A stretch of DNA of 64,000 nt, from the NCBI RefSeq assembly GCF_000559085.1, contig NZ_JALN02000001.1, forward strand, positions 5,270,001-5,334,000. Direction: 5' to 3'. Numbering within the stretch: position 1 is the stretch's first letter; every line of letters begins with the position of its first letter. The position numbers and the translations under genes were made by a program. Below the pieces are notes generated by a model. It saw only the letters and a list, made by a program, of their open reading frames with translations. It had not been told where the DNA came from and did not search any database. Shown piece after piece: positions 15,294-24,289 of the stretch. The DNA is from Mycolicibacterium aromaticivorans JS19b1 = JCM 16368 (GTDB lineage: Bacteria; Actinomycetota; Actinomycetes; Mycobacteriales; Mycobacteriaceae).

Positions 15294-17465
15294 CTAGGTC
15301 AGGTCGTACCGGTCGGCATTCATGACCTTGACCCATGCCGCGACGAAGTCCTCGACGAACTTGCCGGCGTTGTCGTCCTGGGCGTAGACCTCGACCAGGG
15401 CGCGCAGGATCGAGTTCGAACCGAACACCAGATCGTTGGCGGTCGCCGTCCACTTGAGCGCACCGGTGGTCCGGTCGGTGCCCTCGTAGACGTTTTCGGA
15501 GTTCGCCGACGGCTTCCACTCCGTGCCCATGTCGAGCAGGTTGGTGAAGAAGTCGTTCGAGAGCACGCCGACCCGGTCGGTGAACACGCCGTGCTTGGTG
15601 CCGCCGTGGTTGGCGCCGAGCACCCGCAGCCCGCCCAGCAACACCGTCATCTCCGGAGCGGTGACACCCACCAGGTAGGCCTTCTCGATCAGCAGCTCCT
15701 CCAAGGCAGCCTTCTCGCCGGGCCGCACATAGTTGCGGAACCCGTCGGCGCGCGGCTCGAGAACCGCGAACGCCTCCACGTCGGTCTGCTCCTGCGCGGC
15801 GTCGGTGCGGCCGGGTGCGAAGTGAACGTCGATCGCATAGCCGGCCTCCTTGGCCGCCTTCTCGATCGCGGCGTTGCCGCCGAGCACGATCACGTCGGCC
15901 AGCGACACGGTCTTGCCACCTGCGGCGTTGAACTCCTGCTGGATCTTCTCCAGCACAGGAAGCACCTTGGCCAGCTCGGCGGGCTCGTTGGCCTCCCAGC
16001 TGCGCTGCGGCTCCAGCCGCAGCCGGGCGCCGTTGGCGCCGCCGCGCTTGTCGGTGTTGCGGTAGCTCGACGCCGACGCCCATGCCGTCTTGACCAGCTG
16101 CTGAACCGTCAGGCCGGACTCCAGGATCCTGGCCTTGAGCGTGGCGGCATCGGAGTCGTCGATCAGCTCACCCTGTACCGGCGGCACCGGATCCTGCCAG
16201 AGCTGCGGCTCGGCAACCCAGGGGCCCAGGTAGCGGGTGATCGGACCCAGATCGCGGTGCAGCAGCTTGTACCAGGCTTTGGCGAACGCCTCGTTGAGCT
16301 CTTCGGGGTGATCGAGCCAGCGCCGGGTGATCGCACCGAATTCCGGGTCGACCCGCATCGAGACGTCGGTGACCAGCATCGTGGGCTTGCGGTTAGGGCC
16401 GCCGAACGGATCGGGGATGATCGCCTCGGCGTCCTTGGCCTGGAACTGCCACGCCCCCGCCGGGCTCTTGACCAGCTCCCACTCGTAGCCGTAGAGGATC
16501 TCCAGGAACGAGTTGCTCCACTTGGTCGGGGTGGTGGTCCACACCACCTCCAGGCCGCTGGTGATGGTGTCGCCGGCCTTGCCCGAACCGAACGGGCACT
16601 TCCAGCCCAGACCCAGCTGCTCGATCGGGGCGCCTTCGGGCTCAGGTCCCATGCCCTCGTCCGAGCCGGCACCGTGGGTCTTGCCCAGCGTGTGCCCGCC
16701 AACGATCAGCGCCGCGGTCTCCTCGACGTTCATCGCCATCCGGCCGAAGGTTTCCTTGATATCGATGGCAGCCTTCAGCGGATCCGGATTGCCCTCCGGC
16801 CCTTCGGGATTGACGTAGATCAGACCCATGGTTGTGGCGCCGTACGGCTCTGCCAGCGTGCGCTCATCGGAGTAGCGCTTGTTGGTGCCCAACCACTCGT
16901 CTTCCTCGCCGAACAGGATCTCTTCGGGCTCCCAGATGTCGGGGCGGCCGAAGCCGAAACCGAAGGTCTTGAAGCCGGCCGACTCCAGCGCCACGTTGCC
17001 GGCGAACACCAGCAGGTCGGCCCAGGAGATCGTGTTGCCGTACTTCTTCTTCACCGGCCACAGCAGGCGGCGCGCCTTGTCCAGGTTGGCGTTGTCGGGC
17101 CAGCTGTTGAGCGGGGCGAACCGCTGCATGCCCTGACCGCCGCCACCGCGGCCGTCGAAGATGCGGTAGGTGCCCGCGGCGTGCCAGCTCATCCGGATGA
17201 ACAGGCCGGCGTAGCTGCCGTAGTCGGCGGGCCACCAGTCCTGCGAGGTGGTGATCACCGAAAGGAGGTCAGCCTTGAGCGCCTCGGGGTCGAGCTTGGC
17301 GAATTCGGTGGCGTAATCGAAGTCATCGCCGAGCGGGTTGGAGTACGGCGAGTGCGGGTGCAGCTTGGTGACGTCGACCTGATTCGGCCACCAATCCTGA
17401 TTGGTGCGGGGGCCGTGGGCTTTCGGCTCCGGCGCGTCGATGACCGGATTCTCGCTCTCGGACAC
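15294..17465 (-). CDS. katG: Catalase-peroxidase KatG
   Basis: About 723 residues. The heme pocket is intact: distal Arg91-Trp94-His95 ([12 protein letters not shown]), the Tyr217 and Met245 that form the covalent Met-Tyr-Trp adduct ([17 protein letters not shown]), and proximal His258 ([11 protein letters not shown]). The isoniazid-linked Ser region ([10 protein letters not shown]) has Ser. It destroys hydrogen peroxide and organic peroxides and activates isoniazid. I chose the GTG at 17465 because GGAAAGG lies six bases upstream; ATGs at 17480 and 17492 are alternatives. furA lies immediately upstream and should control it. Confidence 0.96.
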
Positions 17466-17515
17466 TTTTTGCCTTTCCATTCCATATTTCATTTGGGTGA
17501 TTGGGCTGTGATCAC

Positions 17516-17956
17516 TTATGTGATCGCAGAAGGTTCATTCGGCGAGCAGTCGGGACATAGTCCCCAGTAGATGACCTCGGCTTCGTCGAGCACGAAACCG
17601 TTGTGCTCAGACGGCGTCAAACAGGGCGCCTCGCCGACAGCGCAGTCGACGTCGCCGATGACACCGCACGATCGGCACACCACATGGTGGTGGTTGTCGC
17701 CCACCCGCGCCTCGTACCGGGCCACCGAGCCCGACGGCTGGATGCGCCGCACCAGGCCGGCCGCGGTCAGCGCGTGCAGCACGTCGTACACCGCCTGCCG
17801 GGACACGTCGGGCAGGCCGGTGCGGACGGCTCCGAAGATGGTGTCGGTGTCGGCGTGCGGGTGGGTGTGCACTGCGTCGAGTACCGCCAGACGAGGGCGG
17901 GTGACCCGCAGCTGCGCTGCCCGCAGCTGGTCGGAGAGATCCGAGACGGAGGTCAC
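17516..17956 (-). CDS. furA: Ferric uptake regulator family protein FurA
   Basis: A 146-residue Fur protein: winged helix at residues 10-80 ([14 protein letters not shown] ... [21 protein letters not shown]), metal-site His89-91 ([11 protein letters not shown]) and two CxxC pairs (Cys94/97 and Cys134/137) that hold structural zinc. In mycobacteria FurA represses furA-katG and is relieved by oxidative stress. The GTG start lies at the predicted transcription start, so translation is probably leaderless. katG begins about 50 bases after its stop. Confidence 0.95.
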
Positions 17957-18385: not shown

Positions 18386-19285
18386 GTGCCCCTCAACACC
18401 GTTGCGCTCGAACTCGTGCCGCCCAACGTCGACCGCACGCCGGACGAGATGCTGGAGGAGGCGCGCAAGGTCGTGCAGCTGTCCGCGGAGACCGGACTGG
18501 ACGGCCGGATCCGGCACGTGATGATCCCCGGGATGATCGAAGAGGACAGCGGCCGTCCGGTCGAGATGAAGCCCAAGCTCGATGTGCTCGACTACTGGTC
18601 CCGCATCTCGCCGGAGCTGCCCGGTGTGCGCGGATTGTGCACCCAGGTGACCGCTTTCATGGATGAGCCGACGCTGGTCAGCCGTCTGACCGCCCTGCTC
18701 GACGCGGGCATGGAAGGCGTGGCGTTCGTCGGTGTCCCGCGGACCATGAACGACGGCGAGGGCGCCGGTGTGGCACCCACCGACGCGCTGACGATCTTCT
18801 CCGAACTGGTCCCCAATCGCGGCGCGATCCTGATTCCGACCCGGGCCGAGGAGGCCGGCCGGTTCGGTTTCAAGTGCGGCCGGGGCGCCACCTACGGGAT
18901 GACGCAGCTGCTCTACTCCGACGCGATCGTCGGCTTTTTGACCGAGTTCGCCGCCACCACCGACTACCGCCCGGAGATTCTGCTGTCGTTCGGTTTCGTG
19001 CCGAAGGTCGAGTCCCGGGTGGGTCTCATCAACTGGCTCATCCAAGACCCTGGCAATGCCGCCGTCGCCGCCGAGCAGGACTTCGTCCGCACCCTCGCCG
19101 AGAGTGAGCCGCAGGTCAAACGGCAGCTGCTGGTGGACCTCTACAAGCGGGTCATCGACGGCGTCGCCGACCTCGGGTTCCCGCTGAGCATCCACTTCGA
19201 GGCCACCTACGGGATGTCCCGCCCGGCCTTCGACACCTTCGCCGAGATGCTGGCGTACTGGTCGCCGGCGACATCCGCATCCTGA
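18386..19285 (+). CDS. Mycobacterial MTHFR-like protein (methylenetetrahydrofolate reductase fold)
   Basis: A 299-residue barrel-type protein. From memory it closely matches the M. tuberculosis Rv2172c / M. smegmatis flavin-free methylenetetrahydrofolate reductase group, e.g. LDGRIRHVMIPGMIEED, EGVAFVGVPRTMNDGEG and ATYGMTQLLYSDAIVGFL. That group reduces 5,10-methylene- to 5-methyl-tetrahydrofolate with NADH and is reported to work without bound flavin. The GTG start follows AGGAG by seven bases. The MenC-like gene begins 13 bases after the stop, so the two are probably co-transcribed. Confidence in the reaction is moderate. Confidence 0.75.
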   Translation: MPLNTVALELVPPNVDRTPDEMLEEARKVVQLSAETGLDGRIRHVMIPGMIEEDSGRPVEMKPKLDVLDYWSRISPELPGVRGLCTQVTAFMDEPTLVSRLTALLDAGMEGVAFVGVPRTMNDGEGAGVAPTDALTIFSELVPNRGAILIPTRAEEAGRFGFKCGRGATYGMTQLLYSDAIVGFLTEFAATTDYRPEILLSFGFVPKVESRVGLINWLIQDPGNAAVAAEQDFVRTLAESEPQVKRQLLVDLYKRVIDGVADLGFPLSIHFEATYGMSRPAFDTFAEMLAYWSPATSAS

Positions 19286-19298
19286 CGCCTCACCGCCC

Positions 19299-20255
19299 AT
19301 GAAGGAAATGATCGACTTCGACGGCGCACCGATTTTCGCGATCCCGGCGCGTGCGGGCTATCGCGGGTTCGGCGGCTGCGAGGGAATGCTGCTCGAAGGC
19401 CCGCAGGGCTGGGGTGAGTTCTGCCCGCCGCGCACCGGCAGTGATCTGGTGGCGGCCCGCTGGTTGACCTCGGCCATCGAAGGCGGAACGGTCGGCTGGC
19501 CGGACCCGATGCGCGGCCGCGTGCCGGTCGCGGTCGCGGTGCCCGCGGTGGGAGCCGAGGAGGCGGCCGCGATCGCCGTCGGCAGTGGGTGTCAAGCGGC
19601 CGACGTGGTGGTCACCGGTCTGCCGGACGATGCCGACCGGCTGGCAGCGGTGCGCTCAGCGCTCGGGCCGGACGCGTCGATCCGTTGCCTGGTCGACCGG
19701 TGGTGGGATGTCGACACCGCCGCCGAGACGATCCCCGGGCTGGACGTGGCGGCCGGTGGTCTGCAGTTCGTGCAGCAGCCGTGCGCGACCGCGCGGGAGC
19801 TGGCCGCGCTGCGGCGCCGGATCGACGTGCGGGTGGCGGTCGACGTCTCCGACCTCGGCAGCGACGGGCTGACCATGTCCGAGGTCGCCGACATCGTGGT
19901 GCTGGACGCCGCCCCGCTCGGCGGCGTGCGCCGGGCATTGCGGTTCGCCGAGAAATGCGACCTACCGGTTGTGGTGTCCGGCGCCGGTCAAACCAGCATG
20001 GGACTGGCCAGCGGCGTGGCGTTGGCCGGTGTGCTGCCCGAGCTTCCCTTCGCCTGCGGGCTGGGCACCGCCGCGGCCCTGGCCGGCGACATCGTGCCCG
20101 CCGGACGCACATTGATCACCGCCGACGGGTACCTGCCGGTGGCGCCCTCGGCCCCGGCGCCAGACCTGGATCGCGTCGCGGAATTCACCATCGACGACGT
20201 CGAGCGCATCGCGTGGTGGCGCGAGCGGCTGCGCACCGCCCGAGAACTTCTCTGA
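19299..20255 (+). CDS. MenC-like enolase-superfamily protein lacking catalytic lysines
   Basis: A 318-residue homologue of actinobacterial o-succinylbenzoate synthase (MenC), recognisable from GPQGWGEFCPP, VPVAVAVPAVGAEEA, VVSGAGQTSMGL and ACGLGTAAALAGD. The KxK acid-base motif is replaced (AADVVVTG, Asp102 and Val104). The metal-binding Glu of the EQPC motif is Gln159 (VQQPC), and the second catalytic Lys is Asp203 (VVLDAAPLGG). Asp133 and Asp182 of the metal site remain. It is full length and in frame, so it is more likely a pseudoenzyme or repurposed protein than a working MenC. It probably forms an operon with the MTHFR-like gene. Confidence 0.85.
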   Translation: MKEMIDFDGAPIFAIPARAGYRGFGGCEGMLLEGPQGWGEFCPPRTGSDLVAARWLTSAIEGGTVGWPDPMRGRVPVAVAVPAVGAEEAAAIAVGSGCQAADVVVTGLPDDADRLAAVRSALGPDASIRCLVDRWWDVDTAAETIPGLDVAAGGLQFVQQPCATARELAALRRRIDVRVAVDVSDLGSDGLTMSEVADIVVLDAAPLGGVRRALRFAEKCDLPVVVSGAGQTSMGLASGVALAGVLPELPFACGLGTAAALAGDIVPAGRTLITADGYLPVAPSAPAPDLDRVAEFTIDDVERIAWWRERLRTARELL

Positions 20256-20271: not shown

Positions 20272-20463
20272 TCAGCGCCGCGGGCGCCAGGCCGCGACGG
20301 CCACCACGACGCCGACCAGCACGACGATCGGGCCGAGCACCGACCACGTCGTGGTGTTGCTCATCGGGCTACCCTGAACCGCTCCGAAACCCTGCAGGGT
20401 GAACAGCACTCCGAACAGCGCGACCAGCACGCCGAGACCTCCGACAACGTGACGCATGGTCAC
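20272..20463 (-). CDS. Small two-helix membrane protein
   Basis: A 63-residue protein with two hydrophobic segments (VVGGLGVLVALFGVLFTL and WSVLGPIVVLVGVVVAVAA) and a basic C-terminus RPRR. Its GTG start overlaps the stop of the MOSC gene by four bases, so it is translationally coupled. An ATG two codons in is an alternative start. No known family; it may be an accessory to the MOSC protein. Confidence 0.68.
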   Translation of the reverse strand: MTMRHVVGGLGVLVALFGVLFTLQGFGAVQGSPMSNTTTWSVLGPIVVLVGVVVAVAAWRPRR

Positions 20464-21440
20464 CCCTTCTTTCCGCTGGGCATGGCCGCCGACACCGCAC
20501 GCATGACGGCCCTCTTCACTGTCGCCGCGCCGCCACCGGCGGTAGCACTCAGCGCGGTCCGGTTCGGTGGATTCAGGTGCAGCACATCACCTTCGGCGAT
20601 TCGGCCGGCGCGGGTGACATTGCCGTAGACGCCGAAGCAGCGGCGGGTGTGCGCGGCGATGGTGCGGGTGACCTCCTTGTCCCGCTTGAGTTCGGGCTGC
20701 TCGTGGGACGGCATCACGCAGCGAATCGTCGGGATCATCGGCGCAAGCTCGGCGTGCGGAGCGTGCAGTCGTCCGCCGCACCACTCCCACTCCGGGTGAG
20801 CGGCCGGGCTGGGGGAGTCCACCACGAGCGTCGGGCGGAACCGTCGCACGTCGAAATCGGAGTCCGGCGCCAACGACCCGAGCGTCGCCAGGCTCTGCTC
20901 GGTGATGATGTGCACGGGATAGGCGTCCACATAGCTGCCGACCGGCGTCGCATAGCGGCTGATCTCCGCGAGCTTGCGCACCGGGAACATCGACAGATCG
21001 GGCAGCGGCTCGTCGTCGTCGAGTCCGAAGATCGTGCGCAGGTCGGTCTTGGTGGCCATCGGCGCCCGGTATTCGCTGCGCCGGTCGATCGGCGGCAGTG
21101 GCCGAAGTTCCACCTCATGGTCGAGGTACCGCGAGAGTGTCTGGTGCACAGCCGGATCCGAGCTCGACACTTCGGTACCGTCGGGGAAGCCGATCAGCAC
21201 CTCCGGTGCGTGTCCCGGCCCGGCATCGGGGCCGGGTGGCTGCGCGTAGCGCGCCGTCAACCACAACAGGCCGGGCAGCCGTTTGGCACTGGTGGTCGCG
21301 TCGGACTCGACATCACGCACCGCCCACGTCCGGTCGGCGTGCACGCCCAGGTCGCCGACTTCGGCCTCGGTGACCTGCTCGCCCTGCATCGACTTCACCG
21401 GATAGCGCCAGATCGAGGTGATACGGCCGGCCTGAATCAT
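20460..21440 (-). CDS. MOSC domain protein
   Basis: A 326-residue protein: N-terminal MOSC beta-barrel domain (ITSIWRYPVKSMQGEQVTEAEV) and a C-terminal MOSC domain (FRPTLVVDSP, TIRCVMPSHEQPEL, HTRRCFGVYGNVTRAGRIAEGDVL). MOSC domains act in molybdenum-cofactor chemistry, from Moco sulfuration to N-hydroxylated substrate reduction (mARC-like). No heme or ferredoxin domain is attached. TAGGCT (minus strand, 21447-21452) lies six bases before the ATG, a likely leaderless start. Coupled to the small membrane protein gene. Confidence 0.88.
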   Translation of the reverse strand: MIQAGRITSIWRYPVKSMQGEQVTEAEVGDLGVHADRTWAVRDVESDATTSAKRLPGLLWLTARYAQPPGPDAGPGHAPEVLIGFPDGTEVSSSDPAVHQTLSRYLDHEVELRPLPPIDRRSEYRAPMATKTDLRTIFGLDDDEPLPDLSMFPVRKLAEISRYATPVGSYVDAYPVHIITEQSLATLGSLAPDSDFDVRRFRPTLVVDSPSPAAHPEWEWCGGRLHAPHAELAPMIPTIRCVMPSHEQPELKRDKEVTRTIAAHTRRCFGVYGNVTRAGRIAEGDVLHLNPPNRTALSATAGGGAATVKRAVMRAVSAAMPSGKKG

Positions 21441-22645: not shown

Positions 22646-24289
22646 ATGAAATCAGCCGCCACGCTCGCCGCATCCCAAGGCGATGCGATCGACTCTCGCT
22701 ACCACCCGTCGGCCGCGGTCCGGCGGCAGTTGAACAAGGTCTTCCCCACGCATTGGTCGTTTCTGCTGGGCGAGATCGCGCTGTACAGCTTCGTCGTTCT
22801 GCTGATCACGGGCGTCTATCTGACGTTGTTCTTCGACCCGTCGATGACGGAGGTCACCTACAACGGCGTGTACCAGCCGCTGCGCGGCATCGAGATGTCG
22901 AAGGCGTACGCCTCCACCCTCGACATCACCTTCGAGGTGCGCGGCGGCCTGTTCGTCCGCCAGGTACACCATTGGGCCGCGCTGCTTTTCGCCGCCGCGA
23001 TCATGGTGCACCTCGCGCGGATCTTCTTCACCGGAGCCTTCCGCCGGCCGCGCGAGGCCAACTGGGTGATCGGGTCACTGCTGTTGATTTTGGCCATGTT
23101 CGAAGGGTTCTTCGGCTACTCACTGCCCGACGATCTGCTGTCGGGCACCGGAATCCGGGCGGCGCTGTCCTCGATCACGCTGGGGATTCCGGTGATCGGC
23201 ACCTGGATGCACTGGGCGCTGTTCGGCGGCGACTTCCCGGGTGACGTCCTGATCCCGCGGCTCTACGCCATCCACATCCTGATCTTCCCCGGAATCATGT
23301 TGGCGCTCATCGGTCTTCATCTGGCGCTGGTGTGGTTCCAGAAGCACACCCAGTTCCCCGGCCCCGGCCGCACCGAGAATAACGTCGTCGGCGTGCGAGT
23401 GATGCCGGTGTTCGCGGTCAAGTCCGGTGCGTTCTTCGCGATGACCGTCGGTGTCCTGGGCCTGATGGGTGGCCTGTTGCAGATCAACCCGATCTGGCAG
23501 ATCGGCCCCTACAAACCCGCCCAGGTGTCGGCGGGCAGCCAGCCCGACTTCTACCTGATGTGGACCGACGGGCTGATCCGGTTGTGGCCGGCGTGGGAGA
23601 TCTACCTCGGCCACCACACCATCCCGGCGGCGGTGGCGGTCGCGGTCCTGATGGGCGTCATCTTCCTGCTGCTCATCGCCTACCCGTGGATCGAGAAGCG
23701 GCTCACCGGCGGTGACGCGCACCATAACCTGCTGCAGCGGCCACGGGACGCTCCGGTGCGAACGGGCATCGGCGCCATGGCAATTGCCTTCTACATCGTT
23801 TTGACCTACAGCGCGATGAACGACATCATCGCCTATCAGTTCCACATCTCGCTGAACGCGACGACCTGGATCGGCCGGATCGGAATAGTGGTGCTGCCGC
23901 CGCTGGTCTTCTTCATCACCTACCGCTGGGCTATCGCCTTGCAGCGCAGTGACCGTGAGGTGCTCGAGCACGGCGTCGAGACCGGCATCCTCAAGCGGCT
24001 GCCGCACGGTGCGTACGTCGAGTTGCATCAGCCGCTGGGCCCGCTCGACGCAGAGGGCCACCCGATCGCGCTGGAATACCAGGGCGCCCCGGTGCCCAAG
24101 CGGATGAACAAGCTCGGCTCTGGCGGGGCACCCGGTCGCGGCAGCTTCCTCACCGCCGACCCTGCCGACGAGGACGCCGCGCTCAGCGAGGCGGCCCACG
24201 CCGCCGAGCAGCGCGCGCGCACCGCGTTGATGGAACGGCAGACCCTCGACCGGGCGGCCGAGAGGCGGGTCGGCACAATCGAGCTATGA
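22646..24289 (+). CDS. qcrB: Cytochrome bc1 complex cytochrome b subunit, isolated QcrB paralogue
   Basis: A 547-residue cytochrome b of the actinobacterial type with a long C-terminal extension. The heme ligand histidines are in place (VHHW near 108-109 with His122; His210 and His225 in YAIHILIF and IGLHLALVW), and the quinol-site region [20 protein letters not shown] is conserved. QcrB oxidises menaquinol in the bcc-aa3 supercomplex. Here it lies alone, without ctaE, qcrC or qcrA, so it is probably a second copy. Its stop overlaps the start of the dehydrogenase gene. CGGAGG precedes the ATG. Confidence 0.9.

What the first reader, a model, noticed from the sequence alone, without database searches (positions are those of the whole stretch)
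19299..20255. MenC-like protein that has lost both catalytic lysines
The protein is a full-length, in-frame homologue of o-succinylbenzoate synthase. The KxK motif is Asp102-x-Val104, the opposite Lys is Asp203, and one metal ligand Glu is Gln159. Two metal Asp residues remain. An intact reading frame with several active-site changes suggests selection for a new role. It appears to be in an operon with an MTHFR-like gene, so a folate- or menaquinone-linked function is possible.
Basis: partly seen in the sequence, partly recalled or inferred. Interest (0 to 1): 0.72.

Follow-up and report, generated by a model that had tools for sequence, protein, structure and literature searches.

The report
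Mycobacterial MenC lookalike without catalytic residues
Many environmental mycobacteria carry a second copy of a vitamin-K-pathway enzyme that has lost its catalytic residues yet is kept intact, which suggests that the protein fold has been reused for some other, still unknown job.

Summary
The ORF at 19299-20255 (+) is an intact MenC-fold protein. Lys-x-Lys is Asp102-x-Val104, the opposite Lys is Asp203, one metal Glu is Gln159. However, only one metal Asp remains (Asp182); the other position is Leu131, and Asp133 sits at the neighbouring Asn site. The genome has a canonical menC elsewhere. At least 78 of 248 genus genomes carry such a second copy; 77 of the 78 lack all three lysines, one keeps a single Lys. 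78 of 78 also match canonical menC (in one assembly split over two frames). The copies form one clade (62 of 62 rows) inside Pseudonocardiaceae-type MenC, next to Actinophytocola and three metagenomic Lys-containing proteins, not next to mycobacterial menC. That fits one transfer followed by loss of catalysis. dN/dS is 0.16-0.36: purifying, but looser than canonical menC. All six catalytic positions vary freely, while a set in the cap, linker and C-terminal segment (Q36, R54, D69, G73, R270, P283, R308) is nearly invariant, though most of it already stood in the nearest catalytic relatives. Best reading: a pseudoenzyme working through a non-catalytic surface. The partner is unknown. The MTHFR neighbour is real but clade-restricted (38 of 111 loci).

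The parts
19299..20255 (+). MenC-like pseudoenzyme gene, 318 aa
19602..19604 (+). codon of Asp102, first Lys position of KxK
19608..19610 (+). codon of Val104, second Lys position of KxK
19689..19691 (+). codon of Leu131, first metal-ligand Asp position
19773..19775 (+). codon of Gln159, metal-ligand Glu position
19842..19844 (+). codon of Asp182, the only catalytic-site residue kept
19905..19907 (+). codon of Asp203, opposite Lys position
19395..19421 (+). cap hairpin segment EGPQGWGEF (residues 33-41); Q36 in 82 of 82 of the set not chosen by pattern
19458..19517 (+). cap helix and linker, residues 54-73 (R54, T57, TVGWPD, RG), nearly invariant in the clade
20106..20162 (+). return segment, residues 270-288 (R270, P280, P283, P288), nearly invariant in the clade
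18386..19285 (+). MTHFR_2 (PF19345, mycobacterial methylenetetrahydrofolate reductase), 13 nt upstream, probable operon partner in this clade
17516..17956 (-). Fur/PerR-family regulator (furA-like), divergent
15294..17492 (-). catalase-peroxidase katG, downstream of the furA-like gene

Best explanation
The gene encodes a pseudo-MenC. Shown by calls: a second MenC of Pseudonocardiaceae (Actinophytocola-like) type is present in part of the genus alongside the genus's own canonical menC; all catalytic positions of this copy were released from constraint; the frame is maintained under purifying selection. Inferred: it entered an ancestor by horizontal transfer, and because it was redundant its catalysis was lost once, early. 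Inferred mechanism: it no longer makes o-succinylbenzoate. It acts as a non-catalytic module that binds a partner (protein, or a ligand outside the barrel pocket) through a surface built from the cap hairpin (E33-F41), the cap helix and linker (R54-G73), the return segment (R270-P288) and R308. That these segments form one surface is not shown (no coordinates). The partner, and whether it is MTHFR in the clade where the genes are paired, are unknown.
For: Loss of catalysis: 110 of 111 distinct Lys-less loci keep none of three Lys and one keeps one; metal ligands kept of three: 0 in 15, 1 in 62, 2 in 21, 3 in 13; 85 of 85 canonical loci keep all six. 68 distinct six-residue states among 83 proteins from genome searches. 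Score 260.5 bits, under the PRK02901 cut-off of 288, while the MenC of G607, identical to that of Actinophytocola gossypii, scores 439.6. One origin: 62 of 62 rows form a clade, SH-aLRT 100, beside Actinophytocola (99), apart from Mycobacteriaceae-type canonical MenC (100); FastTree with 120 Lys-containing relatives gives the same clade (support 1.0), with three metagenomic Lys-containing proteins as sister, support 0.898. Retention: 108 of 111 loci full length, the other 3 cut by contig ends; dN/dS (NG86) 0.164-0.360 in 15 pairs, canonical menC 0.072-0.154, MTHFR_2 0.020-0.104. Shift of constraint: against close Lys-containing relatives 39 sites are freer (all six catalytic ones included) and 27 tighter, among them Q36 (0 changes vs 13), R54 (2/19), D69 (1/17), G73 (0/11), R270 (0/21), P283 (0/8), R308 (0/8); in the set not chosen by pattern Q36 82 of 82, G73 83 of 83, R270 81 of 81, P283 81 of 81. 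The most divergent member (L040, 44%) keeps these segments although it has lost nearly all pocket motifs; R54 is one it does not keep. The model is a confident one, pLDDT 89.8, pTM 0.89.
Against: Most of the tightly kept residues are already present in the nearest Lys-containing relatives, so they may be a structural network inherited from the donor and not a new binding site; clearly peculiar to the clade are R54 (0 of 85 canonical loci, 1 of 120 Lys-containing proteins) and the replacement of Asn78 (Asn in 85 of 85 and 119 of 120). With the close-relative control the cap enrichment is weaker (18 of 27 tighter sites, Fisher p 0.007) than with the first control (19 of 21, p 6e-7). Parsimony counts saturate on the longer pseudoenzyme tree, which can make some sites look tighter. 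Low model confidence in the linker (pLDDT 59 for residues 61-70) is no argument for a binding segment, because the Lys-containing control shows 58 there. No partner was identified and no expression data were looked at. No copy stronger than E 1e-60 was found in 170 of 248 genus genomes.
Confidence: 0.6

Rival explanations
1. A redundant transferred copy that is slowly decaying: catalysis was lost and the rest is just drifting before the gene is deleted.
For: dN/dS is higher than that of canonical menC in 15 of 15 pairs, from 1.3 to 3.6 times; patchy presence, 78 of 248 genomes; mean site entropy 1.36 against 0.78 in Pseudonocardiaceae-type MenC.
Against: dN/dS is far below 1; 0 of 111 loci show an internal disruption (a protein search may favour intact copies); more than ten positions stay invariant or nearly so over a subtree of total length about 28 to 32 changes per site.
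Confidence: 0.15
2. A new enzyme of the enolase fold that uses other residues in the same barrel pocket, possibly different chemistry in different subclades.
For: OSBS enzymes of this superfamily are known to be promiscuous and to have evolved a second reaction, N-succinyl amino acid racemization (PMC4215206, passages); within subclades some pocket residues are shared, e.g. D-x-V/L-Q-D-D near P0001.
Against: Pocket positions turn over freely across the clade: 21-30 changes at each catalytic site versus 0 in relatives, 68 states of 83; positions 20-22, 44, 47, 78 and 227-229, conserved or nearly so in canonical MenC, are freed or replaced too.
Confidence: 0.15
3. The invariant cap and linker residues are only a fold-stabilising network inherited from the donor lineage; the protein's function is a weak one, such as sequestering a menaquinone intermediate or forming mixed oligomers with canonical MenC.
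For: D69, G73, R270 and P283 already occur in 29 of the 31 next-nearest and in the 3 nearest catalytic relatives; several of the kept residues are Gly, Pro or Trp.
Against: The pocket that would bind an intermediate is not conserved; R54, Q36 and R308 are tighter here than in the catalytic relatives; canonical mycobacterial MenC is only 39% identical.
Confidence: 0.1

Closest known systems
o-succinylbenzoate synthase MenC, actinobacterial type (NCBIfam PRK02901; PDB 2opj/2qvh)
   Same: Length, domain order, 55-57% identity to the nearest catalytic relatives P0081, P0098, P0118; predicted cap-plus-barrel secondary structure
   Different: Five of six catalytic residues replaced; score below the family cut-off
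Canonical mycobacterial MenC (this genome's G000:C1:3472530-3473453, L002)
   Same: Homologous, same genome, six catalytic residues intact
   Different: 39% identity, separate clade; next to an acyl-CoA synthetase-like ORF (my reading of the translation)
Actinophytocola MenC (e.g. P0098) and metagenomic P0081, P0118, P0122
   Same: Nearest catalytic sequences in the trees; P0081, P0098 and P0118 share the EGP.GWGEF, TVGWPD..RGR and DGYLPVAP segments
   Different: All six catalytic residues intact
Pseudoenzymes in general (recalled concept)
   Same: Catalytic residues lost, fold kept under selection
   Different: My searches of the held papers, judged by titles and abstract starts only, listed no study of a MenC or enolase-superfamily pseudoenzyme clade in mycobacteria; most listed papers were not opened, and the library is partial

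Membership tests
o-succinylbenzoate synthase (MenC) | KxK on the second barrel strand (motif recalled) | tested here: not met
   Asp102-x-Val104
o-succinylbenzoate synthase (MenC) | Lys on the sixth barrel strand, opposite the substrate (recalled) | tested here: not met
   Asp203
o-succinylbenzoate synthase (MenC) | three acidic metal ligands D, E, D (recalled) | tested here: not met
   Leu131, Gln159, Asp182: one of three
o-succinylbenzoate synthase (MenC) | NCBIfam equivalog cut-off (288 bits) | tested here: not met
   260.5 bits
o-succinylbenzoate synthase (MenC) | dehydration of SHCHC to o-succinylbenzoate | not testable with these tools
   no assay
MenC phylogenetic clade | branches within actinobacterial MenC | tested here: met
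Enolase superfamily fold | Pfam Enolase_like_N and MR_MLE_C above cut-off; cap plus barrel | tested here: met
   45.9 and 57.8 bits; model pLDDT 89.8; a structure search could not be run
Pseudogene | disrupted frame or dN/dS near 1 | tested here: not met
Pseudoenzyme | no catalytic activity with a separate function | tested here: inconclusive
   residues lost and selection shown; inactivity and function need the bench

The most novel reading that the evidence does not exclude
A horizontally acquired menaquinone enzyme became, by one early loss of catalysis, a widespread mycobacterial family of non-catalytic partner-binding proteins, with selective constraint moved from the barrel pocket to a cap, linker and C-terminal surface; in one large subclade it is co-transcribed with MTHFR_2 (the only PF19345 gene of this genome) and may bind or regulate that enzyme.
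Probability: 0.25. Interest if true: 0.75.

Novelty: new variant of a known kind. Interest (0 to 1): 0.58.

Why it matters
It gives a natural series of 225 distinct Lys-less MenC-fold proteins with catalytic sister sequences still available, so the transition from enzyme to pseudoenzyme can be dissected. It also warns that database names such as 'O-succinylbenzoate synthase', given by sources to several of these copies, are probably wrong, which matters for counting menaquinone genes and for drug-target lists in mycobacteria.

Tried and rejected
Considered and dropped: a general folate link (MTHFR_2 upstream in 38 of 111 loci, and one further locus with MTHFR_2 in opposite orientation); katG-furA as the constant partner (by my count a furA-like match upstream in 47 and katG in 44 of 111 loci; matches under 55% identity for katG and 40% for furA were dropped, and some loci are too short); a constant functional neighbour across loci (neighbours were acyltransferase, GDSL lipase, MOSC, redoxin, TENA, NlpC/P60, P450 and others in changing sets). 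The idea that the linker's low model confidence marks a partner-binding segment was dropped after the Lys-containing control gave the same. The first thought that the cap residues were new in this clade was corrected after reading the nearest Lys-containing relatives. In one search two catalytic sequences (L178 Actinophytocola, L194 Amycolatopsis) were mislabelled as Lys-less by my list; for L194 was relabelled and L178 (identical to L093) dropped; one search left both out; the clade counts of 62 exclude them. The 62 rows are a thinned set (under 78% identity to each other) of about 110. Loci were found with a pattern that includes part of the invariant cap segment, so the invariance counts were repeated on 83 proteins alone; those calls start from the window protein and may still favour its like. 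The count 78 of 248 uses matches stronger than E 1e-60 and is a minimum; weaker second and third matches in some genomes were not read.

Full report
What is there. The ORF 19299-20255 (+) gives 318 aa without interruption. It matches the actinobacterial MenC model PRK02901 over nearly its whole length at 260.5 bits, below that model's cut-off of 288, and both enolase-fold Pfam domains above their cut-offs. The closest solved structure by sequence is 2opj. AlphaFold2 gives a confident cap-plus-barrel model, pLDDT 89.8, pTM 0.89.

Active site. Aligned with 2opj and with the genome's own canonical MenC, the six positions K, K, D, E, D, K read D102, V104, L131, Q159, D182, D203.

The genome and the genus. 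The same genome has a canonical menC at G000:C1:3472530-3473453, 39% identical to the query, with all six residues. Of 248 genus genomes at least 78 carry a copy of the present type (loci read). 77 of these lack all three lysines; one (L065, G008) keeps the last. 78 of 78 also match canonical MenC at E 1e-60 or better. In one, G009, that canonical gene matches in two frames, which may be real or an assembly error. Catalytic residues of the canonical copies were read for the 58 loci that were fetched (58 of 58 intact), not for all 78. Named carriers found in genome contigs include M. rhodesiae JS60, M. litorale F4, M. peregrinum, M. brisbanense, M. hodleri, M. wolinskyi, M. porcinum, M. septicum and M. 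frederiksbergense (80 of 215 confirmed loci are listed there, and some are Actinophytocola, Amycolatopsis, Pseudonocardia or Saccharothrix with catalytic MenC).

Origin. In a tree of 108 rows the 62 mycobacterial (or unnamed actinobacterial) Lys-less sequences form one clade (SH-aLRT 100). It lies beside Actinophytocola MenC (99) inside the Pseudonocardiaceae-type MenC group, and Mycobacteriaceae-type canonical MenC forms another clade (100). The canonical protein of this genome has a match in 81 of 81 genomes drawn from the family; not all of those are of the same type, since six sequences of the same-family genus g2 group with the Pseudonocardiaceae type. With 120 Lys-containing relatives (120 of 120 with all six catalytic residues), the nearest to the clade are three metagenomic proteins, P0081, P0118 and P0122, support 0.898. 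One horizontal acquisition and one early loss of catalysis is the simplest reading; this is inference from the tree.

Selection. In 15 pairs from six close genomes dN/dS (NG86) is 0.164-0.360, higher in 15 of 15 pairs than canonical menC (0.072-0.154) and MTHFR_2 (0.020-0.104); YN00 gives 0.130-0.240 for the copy (two YN00 values for canonical menC failed). 108 of 111 distinct loci are full length and 3 are cut by contig ends.

Where constraint went. Residues invariant or nearly so in both canonical groups, such as R20-F21-R22 and R27 (canonical letters), F44, Y47, K102, K104, D131, N133, E159, Q160, D182, E183, S184, K203, S227, S228, are free here. Comparing parsimony changes with 45 canonical sequences, 23 of 292 sites are freer and 21 tighter at p below 0.001; 19 of the 21 lie in the cap, linker or C-terminal part (residues up to 73 or from 262; Fisher p 6e-7). 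Against 120 close Lys-containing relatives, a stricter control, 39 of 308 are freer (32 in the barrel) and 27 tighter (18 in the cap part; Fisher p 0.007). Ten sites are tighter in both tests: Q36, R54, residue 58, V65, D69, G73, R215, R270, P283, R308. No multiple-testing correction was made, and parsimony saturates on the longer pseudoenzyme tree. In 83 proteins not chosen by the pattern, Q36 is 82 of 82, T64 83 of 83, G73 83 of 83, R270 81 of 81, P283 81 of 81, while the six catalytic positions show 68 different states. Asn78, in 85 of 85 canonical loci and 119 of 120 further Lys-containing proteins, is Ala in 76, Ser in 6 and Thr in 1 of 83. Against a simple 'gained site' story: most of these residues already stand in the nearest catalytic relatives. 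R54 is nearly peculiar to the clade (0 of 85 canonical loci, 1 of 120 Lys-containing proteins), and Q36 is shared with the three nearest catalytic proteins and rare beyond them (1 of 117 others; 1 of 85 canonical loci).

Structure control. The Lys-containing relative P0098 was folded with the same 60 sequences: pLDDT 91.1. Its model has a long hairpin (strands 11-21 and 24-34) where the window protein's model has only strands 12-15 and 27-34, so in the models the loop that carries canonical R20-F21-R22 is not formed in the same way. The linker block 61-70 is of low confidence in both (58 and 59), so that is no evidence for a binding segment.

Context. The gene starts 13 nt after MTHFR_2, the only PF19345 gene found in the genome. 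In M. tuberculosis Rv2172c is reported as an NADH-dependent MTHFR, apparently the only copy and essential for growth in vitro (PMC8765232, passages only; that Rv2172c is the counterpart of PF19345 here is inferred from the Pfam name). Of 111 distinct loci, 38 have MTHFR_2 immediately upstream on the same strand and one has it in opposite orientation; several loci are cut too short to tell. In the 29 other genomes that I picked, one MTHFR_2 locus each was examined and showed no furA, katG or MenC-like match within 1.5 kb. A furA-like gene lies divergently upstream in 47 and katG in 44 of 111 loci, with or without MTHFR_2 (my count). The MTHFR_2 pairing is stable within its clade but is not general, so a folate role is possible only for that clade. 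Co-transcription is inferred from the 13-nt gap; the promoter scan, which covers only sigma-70-type consensus, found nothing, and two terminator-like matches lie inside the MTHFR_2 gene and one after the MenC-like gene.

Literature. Searches of the held library, judged by titles and abstract starts, listed no study of this clade. PMC1431709 (passages) states that OSBS enzymes are believed to use the same catalytic residues, which this clade lacks. PMC4215206 was also seen in passages. The paper on ligand binding in the OSBS family cited there was not held.

Judgement. Not an OSBS: about 0.9. A maintained pseudoenzyme working through a non-catalytic surface: about 0.6. The identity of the partner is open.

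Noticed in passing
22646-24289 (+): Stand-alone cytochrome b (QcrB) gene, NCBIfam bc1_QcrB_actin 759 bits; the genome has a second QcrB-like gene at G000:C1:4751864-4753474 (83% identity), so this looks like a QcrB paralogue; its neighbours in the window are a gene with a weak YhgE/Pip match and an alcohol dehydrogenase-like gene.
   Followed up: partly
L285 (G009:C1:904000-907200): The canonical menC of one carrier genome matches in two reading frames that change near codon 214; may be a real frameshift or an assembly error.
   Followed up: no
L065 (G008): A member of the clade that keeps Lys at the last catalytic position (state DVLQDK), possibly an intermediate or a reversion.
   Followed up: no
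L040 (G174): The most divergent member (44% identity, long branch) keeps LEGPQGWGEFSP, GTVGWPDPVRG and LPVAPMPPAPDP while its barrel active-site motifs are almost gone.
   Followed up: partly
20460-21440 (-): MOSC-domain protein near the MenC-like gene; a different MOSC protein (cluster 11) lies directly upstream of the MenC-like gene in 10 of the 60 loci.
   Followed up: no
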